Positions 12,194 through 63,766 of a DNA stretch of 64,000 nucleotides are shown here, piece after piece. The stretch spans positions 434,001 to 498,000 of the forward strand of contig KV419395.1 of assembly GCA_001630475.1 (NCBI GenBank), given 5' to 3'. This DNA comes from Sistotremastrum niveocremeum HHB9708 (Eukaryota; Basidiomycota; Agaricomycetes; Sistotremastrales; Sistotremastraceae). Each line of letters opens with the position of its first letter. Within the stretch, counting starts at the first letter, position 1. Below the pieces are notes generated by a model. The model made no database searches, was not told the DNA's origin, and worked only from the letters and a program-made list of their open reading frames with translations. The translations under genes and the position numbers were made by a program.

Positions 12194-15100
12194 ATGGCTG
12201 CGCTCGACAGCGAGTACGCCTCTGCCTCTCGTTCATCCCGCTCCTCGTCCCCAGCCACACCCTCGTCGTCGTCGTCTCAGGCTCTTTCCCCCGACCCACT
12301 TGCTCTCCTCAAGAACCCTGCTATCTGGCACACAGAGCCTCTCGTCGTTCAGAAAACCGACCCCTGGGCTGCCTACGACGACGGTGAAGACAGAAAGCCA
12401 GCCGACTCTGGCCTCCTCTTTGATGACCTCATCCATGAGGCTGCATTCGAGTGCGTTTTTTCCTTTCTCCTTGTCAGAGCGCTGGTTGACATCATACCAG
12501 CCCTGCTCCTAGCCTCGATCATTCGACTTCGTCCCCCGTTTCCTTTGGCTATCTGGGGACGCCTTCTTCAATGATTGACCAGGAGATCATATCCACAAAT
12601 TCCCCACAGTCCCATCTCTTTTCCCAGCCCGCCAACAACAACCAATGTCTTCCAACTTCGTTTTTCATGTCCACCCCCCAGTCCCAGACCCAACCACAAC
12701 CCCCGCCTGCCGTCACCTCCATTTCTGTTCGCCCACGCAAGCGCGACACCGAGCCGGAAATGGCCGTCGTTACCCCAGCCAAAGAGGCCTGCGTAAAGTA
12801 CGTGTCTTTACTTCCTGCGCAGCGGCCGCATACTAATTTATTGCAGTCTCCCCATATTTTTCCCCAACATTCCATCATCTGGAACCAAATCTCGCGTCGA
12901 GACCCAAGTCCGTCTTGCCTTGGATTTGGCCCACCTCCCGCTCCTGCCCTCTTCCTCCGCTGGAAACTACGCTCCTCACCCCGACCGCTATGACAAAGTG
13001 GGTTCTTGGAAGTGGTTGCGCCTTCCTCAAGGAACTGCCACAAGACGCAGACCACGTAAGGATGCGAAGCAAGGTTCGTGATCTTCGGCCCAAAGGAGCT
13101 TAGTATATCACTCATTCGCTGCCGCATTATCTCAGAAGTCGTGCCTGAAGATACGCTCTACATGCAAGTGGACGTGACGTGCTCGACCGCTCCGCATCTG
13201 CGAGTCGTAGCTTGCTCATCATGCCAGCAACGTGAAGCAAAGCGAACTGCACGTAAACTCGCGTCACGTGTGAGACCCGCACGTTCCGACTCCGAAGAGG
13301 CACCCATTCCTCAACCACTCCAAACCAATGACGATCCTACTTTCGGCAATGGAATCGTCCAGTTCAACTGCCCCGACGTGTTGGAATTTGGGACTGGTAG
13401 CACCGTCCTGCCCCTGAGAATTACCTGCTATTGCCGCCATCACCGGGAAAAGAATGGCTTCCGGTTCGTTCCTTTTTCTTCTTTGATTCCACGGGTATTG
13501 ACTTTTCCATTCTTAGCGTAACTTTCACTCTATCTGACCTCAACGGCCGATGTGTCGCGACGGGCGTGACGCCCCCTATCATGATCACGGATGATCACAA
13601 GTCCTTCGTCAAGAATCCTGCTTCCGCTGATGCAGAAGCTGATCCACATCGTGCGGCGCCTGATGTCGAAGGCAGTCATCTCGCCCAGCGTGGAACTGGT
13701 GTCGACACCAGGTCCAAACGAAAGCCCAAAGCAAAGCCTTACGACGGCGCTCGTCCCTCTGCTACACGAACAGCGCGCTCGACACCAGGCCCGGAACGGA
13801 ACGGCGGCTCGCCAGCGCCTTCGTATCCTGGTCCTCCTTCGCCAGTGACCACAGACAACAGTAACGCACCCAGTCCAGGGCACGCATACACGAATAACGG
13901 AGATGTGAGCATGAGCGAAGCCGTCTCTCCGGACTTCTTCCATTCCTTGAACGCCGCCACGGGAATCTCAGACTTCCAATCGTTCCTCCCAACCGCGCCG
14001 CCCTCTCCGACAATGAACTCCAACATCTCAGCCATTCCTTCCGATCTATTGGACCAGGTGTCCAACATCACATTACCTTATCCGATCGTGCCTAATACTC
14101 ACGAAGCGCCAAAAATTCATAGACTCATTCCTGGCTCTGGACCTACACACGGAGGAATTGAAGTGACGATTCTCGGCGCCAATTTCTATGCTTCGCATAA
14201 TTTGCAGGTGGTGTTTGGAGAGAACAAGTCGAGTGCGACGACGAGGTGGAGTGATAATACACTTGTGTGTATCTTGCCTCCACGCGTATGTGCGGGCATT
14301 GTTGGTGTTGGGTTTGAAGGGTGGAAGGAGGAATTGGATGGGGGTGGCACGCCTACTTTGTTCAACTATACAGACGAAAGTGATCGTGCACTGTGAGTCT
14401 TGTTCTTTGTATTTCTGTGCTTAAAATACTCATTCGTCGTCGTAGGATGGAGTTAGCGTTGCAAGTTGTCGGATTGAAGATGACCGGAAAGATTGAAGAA
14501 GCGAAGAATGTCGCTATCCGCATCGTTGGGAATCCAACTGGCAACTCGTCCTCTCCGACACTCGACGCATCCGATATCATGCATCTGACATACGGCATTG
14601 CTGGTCCCCTCGATCTTGAATCCCTCGTGTTGAAACTTCTTTCACTCCTGGACATCAGCGTCGAGACGACGTCGACTATCGCGAAACAGACTGCGCTGGC
14701 GCTTTGTTCCAAGCCACAGCAAACGCTGCTGCATCTTTCGTGCCACCTGAAATTCCCTGCTCTGACTTCTTTCTTGATTCGGCATGGAGTTGATGTGGAC
14801 GCGAGAGATCGCAATGGCTTCACGGCCCTGCACTTTGCTTGCTTGCACGGCTGGCAAGAAGGTCTGCATGTTCTTCTGAACGCGGGAGCAAGCACCTCTA
14901 TTGTTGACGCTATGGGACGAACTGCTATCGAATGTGCTCCAGAAGGTCTCTCCCTCCCTCCCCTTCCCACCACCATCGAACGAGAATCATCAGAGGACCG
15001 TTCGACCGACTATCAGGGAGTCACTGATAACGACGCAGATGTCGAAGACGAGGTCGACGTTCCGAAACGCCGTACGATGTCTCGTAGATCGTCGCGTGCG

Positions 15101-16180
15101 TTTAACCGTTTATCGGGAGGTGCTCAGACACCTTCCCGGTTGTCGATCAGTCGCCCGACAAGTCGGCCTACAACCCGGCCCCCCAGTCCGACAACCGTGC
15201 TTTCTCAGGTTCTCCCCTCTTTCCCCTCACCGCACGAGGTCGGGAACATGTCCCATGCTTCTCACTCAAACGCTAAGTTGGCTGAGAAGTCCGCGAGGGA
15301 CGAGAAGCATCCTCCAGCGCAGCCGACAACCGCCGATATCGTCAATTGGCTTCGAGATTCGCTTTCCACTCTACAAGCAGGAAGCATACCGAACATGCCA
15401 CCTGTACCTTCAAGCTGGGCGATGCCACAACTTCCCCATATGCCTCAACTGCCCCATATGCCGCAATTACCAAATATGCCGGCGCTTCCTCTACCCCACT
15501 TGCCGCATTTGCCAGACATGCAGGCTCTCTCTCAAATTCCTATGGTATTCCCGATCTACGTTCCGCTACCTACGTGGGCGCCGTTTCAATGGCCTCAGCC
15601 CAATACTGATCGCGCGTCCGCGGAGGATAAGGGTGAAGATAATGAGGGCCATCTTGATAAGGCGCCGACCGGCTATGACCTCAATACTTTCAAGGCGGCT
15701 TGGGAGAAATGGATGGCTCAGACGACGTTGACACTGCAGAATCTTCCTGGGACTTCTGTCGATCCTCCTCCCCTCTACTCCGAAGCCCTGTCCACCACCG
15801 AAGAAAAGGTTAATCAAGAGCAGAAGGTAGTCGAAGCAAGTTCATCACGAGCTTCGTCTTCCTCTGTGTCATTCGCGCCTTCGGAGGGACAGGTCCAGAG
15901 AAGGGGTGATCATCAACGCTCCAAGGTCGCTTCGCGCGAAGCTGCTTCCTTTGCTTACCGACCGAAAGTCAAAACTCAAAAGCAAAAAGCGCAGAATGAC
16001 CGCATGTTGTTTTGGTTCTGGCTGCCCACGTTGATTTGTGAGTAGCACTTCTATCTTATCAGTTACACTTTGCTCATTATTGCGTCAGTGGGTTTCATAT
16101 GGGCGCTGGTTACTTCTGTCCCTTTGGCGTTCGCCGCGCTAGGCGACATGATTCCCCTTCGAGGACTATTGCCTTGGTAA
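12194..16180 (+). CDS. MGA2: Mga2/Spt23-like ER membrane-tethered transcription regulator (IPT/TIG, ankyrin, C-terminal TM)
   Basis: The N-terminus is Ser/Pro-rich. A conserved pre-IPT domain follows (LPIFFPNIPSSGTKSRVETQ, WKWLRLPQGTATRRRPRKD, then CSSCQQREAKRTARKLASRV). An IPT/TIG fold comes next (IHRLIPGSGPTHGGIEVTIL, LQVVFGENKSS). Ankyrin repeats then read TLLHLSCHLKFPALTSFLIR and NGFTALHFACLHGWQEGLHV. The tail ends in a single hydrophobic segment (MLFWFWLPTLI, then LGFIWALVTSVPLAFAAL). This order is that of yeast Mga2/Spt23, ER-anchored precursors cut by the proteasome to activate OLE1 desaturase when unsaturated lipid is low. A His/Pro/Met-rich repeat lies at 15422-15530. An intron near 13075-13135 joins K-Q to EVVPEDTLYMQ. 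Confidence 0.88.
15422..15530 (+). repeat. MPxLPH tandem peptide repeat in the Mga2-like protein
   Basis: About 36 codons repeat a hexapeptide close to MPQLPH/MPQLPN/MPALPL. The underlying DNA repeats as near copies of cttccccatatgcctcaa. It lies between the ankyrin repeats and the membrane anchor, where the family is expected to be flexible. Confidence 0.75.
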
Positions 16181-57469: not shown

Positions 57470-58958
57470 ATGGCTCCCTCACGAGTTACTCCTGCTCGCT
57501 CCCAGAAATCCCCGTCCGACACTGCAGATCCTGCTTCTTCTTCGACCCCCGCAGAGATGGATCATCGAAAACGTCGTCGCAATCGACTTTCTGTCAGTTG
57601 TGTAAACTGCCACCAGTCAAAGCGAATGGTACGATCATGAATTTCCGTCAAATATGTCGACTAACTGAACCAATTGGTCAGTGCGACAGGTATGCTCGCT
57701 AATCTACGTCGTGTCTTGGCAGCGGCTGATCGTCTGCGGGAAGAAAACGACCCTGCTCGCGGTAAAGCCGGTTTCAGATCTTCCTACGCGCGCGCATACT
57801 CACGCCATATCTAGATGCGTACAGTTAGGACTGGTAAATCGGTTAAACACACTAGCCCTCTGCTGCAAGACTAAAACTCATGTTAGACTGGACTGTGTAT
57901 ATATGAAGTCGACGAGAAGGCAGCGGCAAGGTGGGGAAATCGGCCCCTTTATGTGGTTCATCCTCATTTTCTTCTGTAAGCAGCGGAACCCAAGGACACG
58001 AAGAGAACCTGCGCCTGAGAAAGCGCATCGCCGAGCTCGAGAGCGTAGTAAGAGAGCTCAAGCAGAAACCACATCCCCGCTGGGTCGCGGGACTACCTGA
58101 GCGTCCAGAGGGATGGCAGTCACGATCGGGGCAAGACAAGTCAGTCGACAGCTCGTCAGCGTCGTCGCCTGGGAATCCCAGCGAGATACCTGCCCCTGAA
58201 CCATCCGCCGTGGTACCTCTGGAACTGCATCAGCCCAGTATAAATTTCCAACAACCGCCCTCCTTTGTCGACCTCACCGAACTCATGACTGATAATCTTT
58301 TCTCTCCTCCTGGATCGGATGACACCTCTATCTTCTATCAACAAACCCCATCTTCGGCACCAACCATTCCAGTTCGTCCAGTAGCCCGGCGAGCCGAGTC
58401 TTCTCCGACTACTTTCTCTTCTATGGCGTTCGGCGGAGGCCTAACAGATCGTTTTATGCAGCGGATGGTCACGGAATCTCGAGCTACTACGACCAGTCAT
58501 TGCACTTCCTGCTTGGGATTCACTAATCCTGTGTGCGAAGCCTGTCAGAACAGTGCAACTTGCATCCTTCAAGGATTCTGTGCCCACACCATCAACAACA
58601 CTTGCCAATGTCATATGCGTCACCCTTCGTCTACTCATATGGGCCCCTCCAAGTAAGTGTTTGCGGTTCTGGTTATGATTTTTTTTAAGTCTGACATCAC
58701 CGCAGGGAACATTTTGGCCAAGTGTTAGGCTCTTCCTATTCATCACTTCCTCCCGACCTCTCTCTGTTTGGGCAGCCTTCAGCGACTTTCGCCTCAGAGG
58801 AGGTTGGAATGTCCCCTATCTCAGAATTTCCGTGGCATCCTTCAGAGAATGGCCATATGATGGGATCGGATTTGTTGCCCTGGGAGGCTTCACTTCAAGA
58901 AGCGTTGTCCAACAACAACTCGAGTTCCACCGCACAAAGCACATTTCACTGGCCATAA
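57470..58958 (+). CDS. Zn2Cys6 transcription factor, domain assembled from micro-exons
   Basis: Exons 57470-57628, 57682-57689 (8 nt), 57744-57761 (18 nt), 57815-57833 (19 nt), 57887-57930 and 57981 onward join in phase. They give RKRRRNRLSVSCVNCHQSKR, then M-CDRKRPCSRCVQLGLTGLC and IYEVDEKAAASS. This is a C-x2-C-x6-C, C-x2-C-x8-C binuclear zinc cluster. A leucine-zipper-like helix follows (ENLRLRKRIAELESVVRELK). The middle is Ser/Pro-rich, and near the end a cysteine-rich stretch (SHCTSCLGFTNPVCEACQNS, then ATCILQGFCAHTINNTCQCH) could bind more metal. A last intron near 58656-58706 precedes the terminal exon. Target genes unknown. No fungal-specific middle-homology domain is evident. Confidence 0.83.
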
Positions 58959-59629: not shown

Positions 59630-60159
59630 ATGGTGCGGTTGATCACTCACAATTTGCTGGCATGTCATGCCAAGGGCTGCACTACAAACAACTTTCCTCT
59701 CGTCTTCAAAGATGTCCAGCTTGAAATTCGCGAATCTGAAATGAACCCTGAGTTTTTGCGCAACTTCTACCCAAAACTCGAATGGGACGCTTTGGTCAAA
59801 ACAGCTGAGCAGGTGGGCCCCGCCGACCTATCCTGACCAGTCGTGCTTGTTACTACGTCTTGTCATAGCTTGGCGACACTTCATTGCCCAAAACGCAGCC
59901 GCCCATCGAGTCAGTCGATGAGGAATTCTTGAAGGCTCTGCATCACGTTCTTCTTGAAGTAAGCACTCGGCCCATTCGGATTTCACTACGGGTTTAACAG
60001 GAGATAGATCCATGTAGAGGAAGGGGCAATGACCTGCCCCAACTGTGAGCACCGTTATGGAATCGTGAGCGGCATCCCCAACATGGTGAGTGTCTTGTAC
60101 TGGCTATAAATACACGCACTCAAGCCTCAAAGCTTCTTGCCGAGCACGAAGTTGCATGA
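59630..60159 (+). CDS. TRM112: Trm112, methyltransferase activator
   Basis: MVRLITHNLLACHAKGC begins the family with the first Cys pair, followed by FPLVFKDVQLEIRESEMNPE, FLRNFYPKLEWDALVKTAEQ, LGDTSLPKTQPPIESVDEEF, LKALHHVLLE, IHVEEGAMTCPNCEHRYGIV and SGIPNM-LLAEHEVA. The two Cys pairs (CHAKGC and CPNC) form the zinc site. Trm112 is the obligate partner of Bud23, Trm9, Trm11 and Mtq2 methyltransferases in translation. Four exons with GT-AG introns are read, with ATG 59630 preferred. It is convergent with ALG14, 312 bp apart. Confidence 0.96.
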
Positions 60160-61466: not shown

Positions 61467-63766
61467 TCAAAAGCCGCCTAATAAAGCGATACGCTCTTTG
61501 ACCTTCCTTATCATATCCTGCGCGGCTGCCCCTTCTTCCGTGTGACTATTGACGACAATTTCAAGGTATTCTAACGCCAGTACGACGTTTGGCCGACGAA
61601 CTTGACGTTCCCCGGGACTTTGCGCTACAAAAGCTTCAAGTAAACGAAATTCGTGACTTGCCACATAAAAGCAGCTCTTTGCATATTCCAGGACACTCCT
61701 TTTCTCTGTAGACAAAGTTAGTCCGGGTCGAATGTTCCTAACACACAACGTACCATCAGCTCGAGCGACTTCAACAATATGCTGATGATATGCTGCTGCT
61801 TGAGAGCCGTCTCCTATAGCTTCGTATAAGGCTGCAATTTTCCCATTAATCGTGATTTCCTGGGGATCGGCCCCTATCAGAGCACGTTTGTAACAGTCAA
61901 TGGCTTCCTGGGCCCTGAGATCATAATCAGCGCCATGAGCAGCGCAAAGACAGTATTGAGGCCAACCTGCCCAGATCCGCATAACATTTCGCCATCGCAT
62001 TCCATATTCGAACATCGTACGGCCTTGAGAAGTCGTTCGTTGGTGGATCAAGCGAACATTGAACGGTGTTACGTACCTTAGTGCGGTCGCTCGCTGGTAG
62101 TAATGTAGTGCATATTGATGCATGCTTAGGAGTTCGTAAGCCTGTCCCAGACCAAACCAAGCACGATAGTCTCGCCGGTTGACATCTGTGCAAACTCAGT
62201 TATGCGGGATGAATACCGTACAACATGCTCCGTACCAACTGCCCGCCGATAAGCCTCGATAGCTGCTTGTGAGTTTTTCATCTCTATATACTCATGACCC
62301 ATTAATGTCCAAGCCGACAGGCAAGTTCTGTCGAGTTGGACTGCTCGTCTGAAATATCGGATCGCCTTATCGTGTTCAGCTCTCAGACTGTAGTGGTTGC
62401 CTGTGCATGAATGGTGAGAAGGAATGTAACATCATTGGACCTAAGAAATTGCCTACCAACGAAACAGCATACTTCAGGCCGGTCTTTATCCAGAGCCAAG
62501 AAGTTGTGAGCCAACTTTGACAACTTGGTCCGGTTTCCTGTGACGTAGAGGATGTCGGAGAAGATATGAATATCGTCTATTCGATATGGGTCCGTTTTGA
62601 TGATATCGTCATAAATCTGTTCTGCGGCTTGGAAGTCTGTCCAGGAATCGTATGAGCCTTCAAAGTGGACGACACCGGCGAGAAAGTCTATGCACCTCTC
62701 TGGAGATATAGTATGTGGGCTTTTTGGCTCAACAAATAAAGGGAAGTTGGAAATCGCTCCAGTAATTTATCGACCATTTCAAGCTCTTCTTCGCTAGGTG
62801 AGTGCATCTCAATCATGATGCGAATTAAGAACATTTGTGTGGCGGGATGGTCGGGAAGGAGAGGTTGGATGCCGGCACACTAAAAAGAACGTACGGTCAA
62901 CGAATGGAAGATATTCACAACGAGACAGCCAAACCTCTTCGGCATCTTCGAGGCATTGTGAGAGTTGAATCCACGCCGACCAATTCCACGAGTAAGCAGT
63001 AACAGAACGAATCAGACATTCGATTGCCTCCGCGCGTCGCTTTAGTCGGTATAATAAAGTTCCCTTCCTAGGAGACGATCAGAATTGGGTGGCATGACGT
63101 TCGGTAGGCGGATTACAAGAATAGTAGAAAGGGGTCTAGTGGCTCCTGCAAGTCTCTCAGAATGTCAGATAGGTCGTGGTTGACGGGTGTAGGAGGCTGC
63201 TGTCGGGTACCTGTACCTTCTGTTTCAGCAATACACCAGAAATCGGGGAGAAGAGCTCACTGTCTAATGCATTCCATTCGTCCAATGCCTTCCTTTCTGT
63301 GGACTGGCTGCTCGTGTTAGTCGTTCAAAGCCACATCTACCACGTGAAACTCACCAAAAACTGAGCGTACGACCTCACGAATCTTGCTTTTGGGCTACGA
63401 CACGACTTCAACGTGAATGTTGTTCTCTCCAGCTCCCTCGAATCAAAGTAACAGCGCGCTATTCGAAAGGCGTCTTCCTCCTCTTCCGATATATCCTCTT
63501 CCGGCGTGGTGTCCATCTCAAAGGACATCGAGGGTCGCGGTTGTGCCGTTCTGGCAGGCGTCGAGGTCATGAAATGTGATGCGGGTTGGGTTCGAGTATT
63601 TGTCGGGCGAGTGGATGCGAATAATTCGGCGGCCCTGAAATCAAACCGTCAGATCAAGCAAAGGACACGTCTGAAACAGGAGAGACCATTTGGTAGCAGA
63701 ATATAATCCACGGTCCGAGCAGTCTTTGATTGCCTGTTTGAGAGCTGAACGGTCTGCAGCGTTCAT
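61467..63766 (-). CDS. CDC23: Cdc23/APC8, anaphase-promoting complex TPR subunit
   Basis: The start [20 protein letters not shown] gives the APC8-type N-terminus (LYSATKW, then AAELFASTR). TPR repeats follow: [120 protein letters not shown] and [20 protein letters not shown]. This block is the conserved APC8 core. The subunit forms part of the TPR lobe that holds coactivator and platform. It ends with [11 protein letters not shown]. An in-frame ATG at 63841 would extend the N-terminus; the conserved helix supports 63766. Many small introns; the first large exons are split. Confidence 0.93.

What the first reader, a model, noticed from the sequence alone, without database searches (positions are those of the whole stretch)
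57470..57980. Zn2Cys6 DNA-binding domain assembled from five exons including 8, 18 and 19 nt micro-exons
The third cysteine comes from the 8-nt exon TGCGACAG and the fourth and fifth from the 18- and 19-nt exons. All phases close to give C-x2-C-x6-C-x6-C-x2-C-x8-C. Skipping any one would remove DNA binding, so regulated splicing could switch the factor on or off.
Basis: partly seen in the sequence, partly recalled or inferred. Interest (0 to 1): 0.75.

Follow-up and report, generated by a model that had tools for sequence, protein, structure and literature searches.

The report
Zinc-cluster gene split by three micro-exons
A fungal gene-control protein has its DNA-binding domain pieced together from unusually tiny exons; the pieces look real and needed, but nothing in the sequence shows that they act as an on/off switch.

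Summary
An ATG at 57470 opens a seven-exon gene whose Zn2Cys6 domain is joined from exons of 159, 8, 18, 19 and 44 nt by introns of 53-54 nt. Within the limits searched (up to four introns of 40-300 nt), every path giving six correctly spaced cysteines uses the same 8- and 18-nt exons. The 45 micro-exon bases encode what an intron-free paralogue encodes in one exon: score 83, best of 1500 shuffles 12. One detail is wrong: the third gap is x5, not x6.

The switch idea is untested. Losing any micro-exon would break the cluster; three of seven skipping combinations keep the frame. Published fungal surveys mostly rank exon skipping far below intron retention, though one junction count is less lopsided. 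I favour constitutive splicing, intron by intron, with intron retention as the likeliest leak or control. A paralogue on C14 has one 48-nt exon between the same outer introns, so two extra introns account for the micro-exons (gain more likely than loss). Trichoderma Xlr2, with a 20-nt microexon in its Zn2Cys6 domain, is the direct precedent.

The parts
57470..57628 (+). exon 1: start codon, basic RKRRRNR stretch, C1 and C2 (CVNC), ends after KRM, phase 0
   Evidence: Pfam Zn_clus; same intron position and phase in C14 paralogue
57629..57681 (+). intron 1, 53 nt, GTACGA..CTAAC..CAG
   Evidence: position shared with C14 paralogue (52-nt intron)
57682..57689 (+). exon 2, 8-nt micro-exon TGCGACAG: C3, D and two bases of R
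57690..57743 (+). intron 2, 54 nt, GTATGC..CTGAT..AAG (minority acceptor); not in either paralogue
57744..57761 (+). exon 3, 18-nt micro-exon: last base of R, KRP, C4, S and two bases of R
57762..57814 (+). intron 3, 53 nt, GTAAAG..TAG; not in either paralogue
57815..57833 (+). exon 4, 19-nt micro-exon: last base of R, C5, VQLGL
   Evidence: one of the alternatives listed
57834..57886 (+). intron 4, 53 nt, GTAAAT..TAG
   Evidence: position and phase shared with C14 paralogue (54-nt intron)
57887..57930 (+). exon 5, 44 nt: TGL, C6, IYEVDEKAAA
   Evidence: also 44 nt in C14 paralogue
57931..57983 (+). intron 5, GTGGGG donor; tandem acceptor TAAG|CAG at 57980 or 57983 (one Ser more or less)
   Evidence: position and phase shared with C14 paralogue
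57981..58652 (+). exon 6 (from 57981 or 57984): coiled-coil-like LRKRIAELESVVRELKQKPHPRW, middle part, Cys-rich segment about 58498-58614
   Evidence: first part conserved in paralogues
58653..58705 (+). intron 6, 53 nt, GTAAGT..CAG
58706..58958 (+). exon 7: C-terminal end and stop codon

Best explanation
The region is the DNA-binding domain of a Zn2Cys6 transcription factor of a basidiomycete-like fungus; among solved structures its DNA-binding part and following helix are most like yeast Hap1/Cyp1. Two extra short introns cut an ordinary exon of about 45-48 nt that carries C3-C5 into exons of 8, 18 and 19 nt. Each ~53-nt intron is recognised as a unit (intron definition), and the introns beside the 8-nt exon are probably removed one after the other, because both splice sites of so short an exon can hardly be occupied at once. 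The micro-exons are included as a rule, since only the full set gives a working protein; the commonest faulty product is expected to be an intron-retaining mRNA with an early stop. Shown: exon anatomy, coding homology, coding consequences of skipping and retention. Inferred: inclusion in mRNA, sequential removal, DNA binding, intron gain.
For: The cluster core has one solution within the limits searched; shuffle test 83 against 12. Spliced core CDRKRPCSRCVQLGL against CDRKRPCTRCIQLGL in the C18 paralogue, which has no intron from C1 to C6; over 57 nt (45 of the micro-exons plus 12 of exon 5) the differences by codon position are 4, 0 and 12. The C14 paralogue has introns 1, 4 and 5 at the same positions and phases and one 48-nt exon in place of the three micro-exons. 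Intron-like sets in this genome peak near 48-56 nt. Retaining any one of introns 1-5 stops the protein at 56-112 aa. Hap1/Cyp1 chains match residues 35-111, best E 2.8e-07. Intron retention is the main fungal event type; 50 of 69 constitutively spliced microexons in a plant RNA set had a flanking intron with delayed splicing.
Against: No RNA evidence. Intron 2 (AAG) and intron 5 (GTGGGG) have weak sites, so inefficient or regulated splicing is plausible. A Zn2Cys6 microexon switch has been reported (Xlr2). In S. commune a junction count gives 1,527 coding-region skipping events against 7,851 alternative-site events. No orthologue outside this genome was found, so conservation of the junctions is untested and gain cannot be told from loss with certainty.
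Confidence: 0.6

Rival explanations
1. Control by intron retention or delayed splicing: the run of micro-exons slows splicing, part of the transcript keeps intron 2 (AAG acceptor) or another intron, and the amount of full-length factor is set by how fully it is spliced.
For: Retention of any of introns 1-5 gives a stop. Intron retention is the main fungal type. In S. commune hom1 the most abundant transcript retains an intron and loses the homeobox. 50 of 69 constitutively spliced microexons in a plant set have a flanking intron with delayed splicing. AAG acceptors are a minority here.
Against: Sequence alone cannot show it; sites that look weak may be spliced well.
Confidence: 0.25
2. Regulated micro-exon skipping: in some condition the 18-nt exon, or exons 2+4 or 2-4 together, are left out in frame, giving a protein without a complete DNA-binding domain that acts as an inactive or dominant-negative form.
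For: Skipping 3, 2+4 or 2+3+4 gives 384, 381 or 375 aa in frame. Xlr2 of Trichoderma virens loses its GAL4-like domain when a 20-nt microexon is not expressed. Transcription factors are among the alternatively spliced genes of S. commune, and its junction analysis counts 1,527 skipping events in coding regions.
Against: Needs excision units of 115-258 nt where introns are about 53 nt. Skipping is 1% of coding events in the main S. commune analysis and 3% over 23 fungi. No RNA data.
Confidence: 0.09
3. Alternative 3' splice site of intron 2: the CAG at 57720-57722 competes with the AAG at 57741-57743 and diverts transcripts to an in-frame TGA.
For: CAG is the preferred acceptor class and lies 21 nt upstream; the product stops at 57 aa.
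Against: It would make a 33-nt intron, below the length peak of intron-like sets here (which counted 40 nt and more only).
Confidence: 0.03
4. The gene is a decaying pseudogene and the apparent micro-exons are remnants.
For: Odd splice sites at introns 2 and 5.
Against: A 390-aa frame closes over seven exons; differences from C18 fall at codon positions 4/0/12; the core is retained.
Confidence: 0.03

Closest known systems
Trichoderma virens Xlr2 (PMC11121469; abstract, passages and section 2.5 seen)
   Same: A microexon (20 nt, encoding PCRRCE with two of the cysteines) inside a fungal Zn2Cys6 domain; without it the DNA-binding domain is lost.
   Different: One microexon, not three; ascomycete, XlnR-like protein with a fungal transcription factor domain; glucose dependence was shown there by RNA-seq and RT-PCR, nothing comparable here.
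Micro-exons of Phanerochaete chrysosporium P450 genes (PMC1184071; passages seen) and the 1-nt exon of Fusarium CYP621A (PMC12940212; passages seen)
   Same: Very short exons (down to 6 bp) in a basidiomycete with frequent 45-55-bp introns; PMC12940212 cites an 8-nt exon in a conserved P450 motif and argues from an intronless relative, as done here.
   Different: Enzymes, not DNA-binding domains.
Plant AP2 9-nt microexons (PMC8831610; passages seen)
   Same: Microexon in the core of a DNA-binding domain, often missed by annotation.
   Different: Conserved across plants; here conservation beyond the genome is untested.
Hap1/Cyp1 DNA-binding domain of yeast (1hwt, 2hap, 1qp9, 1pyc)
   Same: Basic RKRNR stretch, Zn2Cys6 cluster and the helix after it align over residues 35-111.
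   Different: The solved chains are DNA-binding constructs only; membership of a Hap1 orthologous group was not tested.

Membership tests
Zn2Cys6 (Zn_clus, PF00172) transcription factors | Six cysteines as C-x2-C-x6-C-x5..12-C-x2-C-x6..8-C | tested here: met
   Spliced protein has C-x2-C-x6-C-x5-C-x2-C-x8-C; spacing rule as stated in PMC7295025
Zn2Cys6 (Zn_clus, PF00172) transcription factors | Profile match above the curated cut-off | tested here: met
   30.9 bits, cut-off 21
Zn2Cys6 (Zn_clus, PF00172) transcription factors | Coiled-coil dimerisation element after the cluster (common, not universal) | tested here: inconclusive
   Hap1/Cyp1 chains align through this part to residue 111 and it is conserved in paralogues, but no coiled-coil program was run
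Zn2Cys6 (Zn_clus, PF00172) transcription factors | Zinc and DNA binding | not testable with these tools
   needs the protein
Micro-exon (30 nt or less) genes | Internal exons of 30 nt or less with GT-AG introns and coding constraint | tested here: met
   8, 18 and 19 nt
Micro-exon (30 nt or less) genes | Presence of the exons in mature mRNA | not testable with these tools
   no transcript data
Xlr2-type switch-like microexon | Condition-dependent omission giving a form without DNA-binding domain | not testable with these tools
   no transcript data; only the coding consequence was computed
Xlr2-type switch-like microexon | Fungal transcription factor domain as in Xlr2 | tested here: not met
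   Only Zn_clus found in Pfam at E up to 1

The most novel reading that the evidence does not exclude
The three consecutive micro-exons, whose total of 45 nt keeps the frame between phase-0 junctions, form a splicing-controlled module: under some condition exons 2-4 (or exon 3) are removed together, or intron 2 is held back, so that the same gene makes an active factor or a DNA-binding-dead partner. No such multi-micro-exon module in a basidiomycete appeared in the listings of my paper searches.
Probability: 0.09. Interest if true: 0.65.

Novelty: new member of a known kind. Interest (0 to 1): 0.3.

Why it matters
Automatic annotation often misses exons this small (PMC12940212, PMC8831610, passages seen), and here that would hide the DNA-binding domain and so the transcription factor itself. 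The pair C14 paralogue / window gene shows how two extra introns can turn an ordinary 48-nt exon into three micro-exons inside an invariant metal site, a natural test of intron-defined splicing of very short exons. If alternative inclusion were found, it would be a further fungal case beside Xlr2.

Tried and rejected
Simpler exon structure: GT-AG (then GT/GC-AG) paths of up to four introns of 40-300 nt from C1; every solution contains the same 8- and 18-nt exons, so rejected for a Zn2Cys6 product within those limits. Chance assembly: rejected by shuffles. Mobile intron origin: introns 2 and 3 with flanks matched only themselves in the genome (the tool skips common words, so this does not prove that they are unique), and one search found only one imperfect 10-nt direct repeat and three short inverted repeats. 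A second gene with the same intron-1 / 8-nt-exon pattern: one match, the window itself (a narrow pattern). Relatives elsewhere: viral contigs and genome contigs gave none; these are viral and prokaryote collections, so this says nothing about fungal orthologues. Splice-site matrix: searches failed because runs of N were counted as codons; the repaired script trained on 5 introns only and was not used. Searches replaced it with counts against the reversed sequence. In one search (46-60 nt), the base before AG was C 59, T 37, A 15, G 12 (control C 8, T 9, A 10, G 4) with 120-nt flanks, and C 27, T 21, A 8, G 6 (control C 1, T 1, A 2, G 0) with 180-nt flanks: AAG is a minority but probably used. 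One search was off by one at the start codon and is superseded. One search was given 24 entries (23 distinct loci; L001 and L012 are the same place): the window and 22 others, of which 6 gave no path (L004, L006, L008, L046, L048, L052). For L013 the script read through intron 4 and misplaced the sixth cysteine (corrected); the other paths are best-scoring heuristics that I did not check one by one. The 22 cover 21 of the 34 distinct places (37 matches) plus C14. That list is biased: it needs a contiguous Zn_clus match, and it missed the window gene and C14 themselves, so other clusters split by micro-exons would be missed too. One search translated exon 6 in the wrong frame and told nothing. 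Paper searches: 9 of 9 listed; 20 of 576; 15 of 416; 15 of 73; 12 of 34; 10 of 28; 10 of 179; only the listed rows were seen, and the library lacks most subscription journals.

Full report
What was claimed and what is there. Reading the sequence and splicing it in a script confirms this: exons 57470-57628, 57682-57689, 57744-57761, 57815-57833 and 57887-57930, followed by exons 57981 (or 57984)-58652 and 58706-58958. Introns are 53, 54, 53, 53, 50/53 and 53 nt. The product has 390 (389) residues and one Pfam match at E up to 1, Zn_clus, 30.9 bits against a cut-off of 21.

Is it more than chance? Starting at the first cysteine I enumerated paths with up to four GT-AG introns (region 57560-58020, gaps x5-12 and x6-9, no extra cysteine inside). 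With introns of 40-75 nt there are two solutions with six correctly spaced cysteines, with 40-300 nt five, and the same five when GC donors and exons of 1 nt are allowed. Each uses four introns and contains the same first three introns and the 8-nt and 18-nt exons; they differ in how the last cysteine is reached, so the 19-nt exon rests on the paralogue comparison.

Relatives in the same genome. The window lies in a 34.7-Mb genome of 111 contigs; that it is a basidiomycete is my inference from intron density and gene content. A search with the spliced protein finds two clear paralogues. C14 shares intron 1 (after KRM, phase 0), intron 4 (before SGLC/TGLC, phase 0) and intron 5 (phase 2), but has a single 48-nt exon where the window gene has 8+18+19 nt; its exon 5 is also 44 nt. 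C18 has no intron between C1 and C6. Introns 2 and 3 are therefore peculiar to the window gene among the three. Gain in this lineage is the simplest reading, but without outgroups loss is not excluded. Over 57 nt (the 45 of the micro-exons plus 12 of exon 5) the differences from C18 fall 4, 0 and 12 on codon positions one, two and three, as expected under coding constraint.

Other zinc clusters. Of 22 other distinct loci given to a splice-path script, 16 could be resolved: 5 with no intron in the cluster, 9 with one, and C14 and L005 with two, with internal exons of 48 and 59 nt. None shows an exon under 30 nt. This survey covers 21 of the 34 distinct Zn_clus places, its paths are heuristic, and it is biased against split clusters, since one search missed the window gene and C14 themselves. 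So it shows that micro-exons are not the rule here, not that this gene is unique.

Splice sites. Intron-like GT-branch-AG sets in 264 kb (window plus twenty 10-kb stretches, 11.5 kb of it N) show a length peak near 48-56 nt and a preference for C or T before the acceptor AG; A is at or modestly above control (24 against 27; 15 against 10 and 8 against 2). So introns 1, 3 and 4 have acceptors of the common classes, while intron 2 (AAG) belongs to a minority. The nearer CAG at 57722 would leave a 33-nt intron and a TGA, so AAG is the only acceptor that gives the cluster. Intron 5 has a GTGGGG donor and a tandem acceptor that changes one serine.

What omission would do. Skipping 2, 4, 2+3 or 3+4 shifts the frame (stops at 65-88 aa); skipping 3, 2+4 or 2+3+4 keeps the frame with an incomplete cluster (384, 381, 375 aa). 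Retaining any of introns 1-5 stops the protein at 56-112 aa; retaining intron 6 at 307 aa. So the statement that skipping removes DNA binding is sound on paper.

How it most likely works. Skipped exons are 3% of events averaged over 23 fungi, with intron retention 61% (PMC3925392, passages). In Schizophyllum commune they are 1% of coding-region events against 43-44% intron retention, but 21% of all primitive events, and a separate junction analysis in the same paper counts 1,527 skipping events against 7,851 alternative sites in coding regions (PMC5034255, abstract and passages). An 8-nt exon leaves little room for both splice-site complexes, so one neighbour intron is probably removed before the other; this is inference, in line with the delayed flanking introns of 50 of 69 constitutively spliced plant microexons (PMC8831610, passages). 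I therefore expect regular inclusion with some intron retention, and rank regulated skipping low but not nil. Among solved structures the closest is the Hap1/Cyp1 DNA-binding domain, including the basic RKRNR lead.

Precedents. Xlr2 of Trichoderma virens has a 20-nt microexon coding for PCRRCE in its Zn2Cys6 domain, and glucose changes its transcripts (PMC11121469, abstract, passages and section 2.5). Phanerochaete P450 genes have exons down to 6 bp (PMC1184071, passages); Fusarium CYP621A has a 1-nt exon, and the same paper cites an 8-nt exon in a conserved P450 motif (PMC12940212, passages). One group of Pleurotus zinc-cluster genes has many exons under 50 bp (PMC7295025, passages). The present case, three micro-exons in a row holding C3, C4 and C5, is striking but not a new kind of thing. 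The rows listed by my searches showed no report of such a triple in a Zn2Cys6 domain, in a library that lacks most subscription journals.

Limits. No RNA, no orthologues from other fungi, no protein data. The switch claim is neither shown nor excluded.

Noticed in passing
own genome G000:C10:389526-390245 (-), locus L003 487-2004 (-): One 505-aa open frame holds five Zn2Cys6-like clusters in a row by eye (translation; four separate Zn_clus matches). Zinc-cluster proteins usually have one (recalled); a poly-Zn2Cys6 protein deserves its own look.
   Followed up: partly
window about 58498-58614 (+): Cys-rich segment (8 Cys, HCTSC..VCEAC..C..C..CQCH) in the C-terminal half of the same protein, without a Pfam match at E up to 1; could be a metal or redox sensing part. 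No Cys-Pro haem motif seen by eye.
   Followed up: no
window 57978-57983 (+): Tandem acceptor AAGCAG at the end of intron 5, which would give isoforms with or without one serine.
   Followed up: no
window about 59630-60090 (+) and 61467-62766 (-): Neighbours read by eye as a Trm112-like gene and a TPR protein like Cdc23 (translations; not searched).
   Followed up: no
window 13401-16045 (+): Open frames with what looks like an IPT/TIG part and ankyrin repeats, as in Mga2/Spt23-type regulators (by eye; not searched).
   Followed up: no
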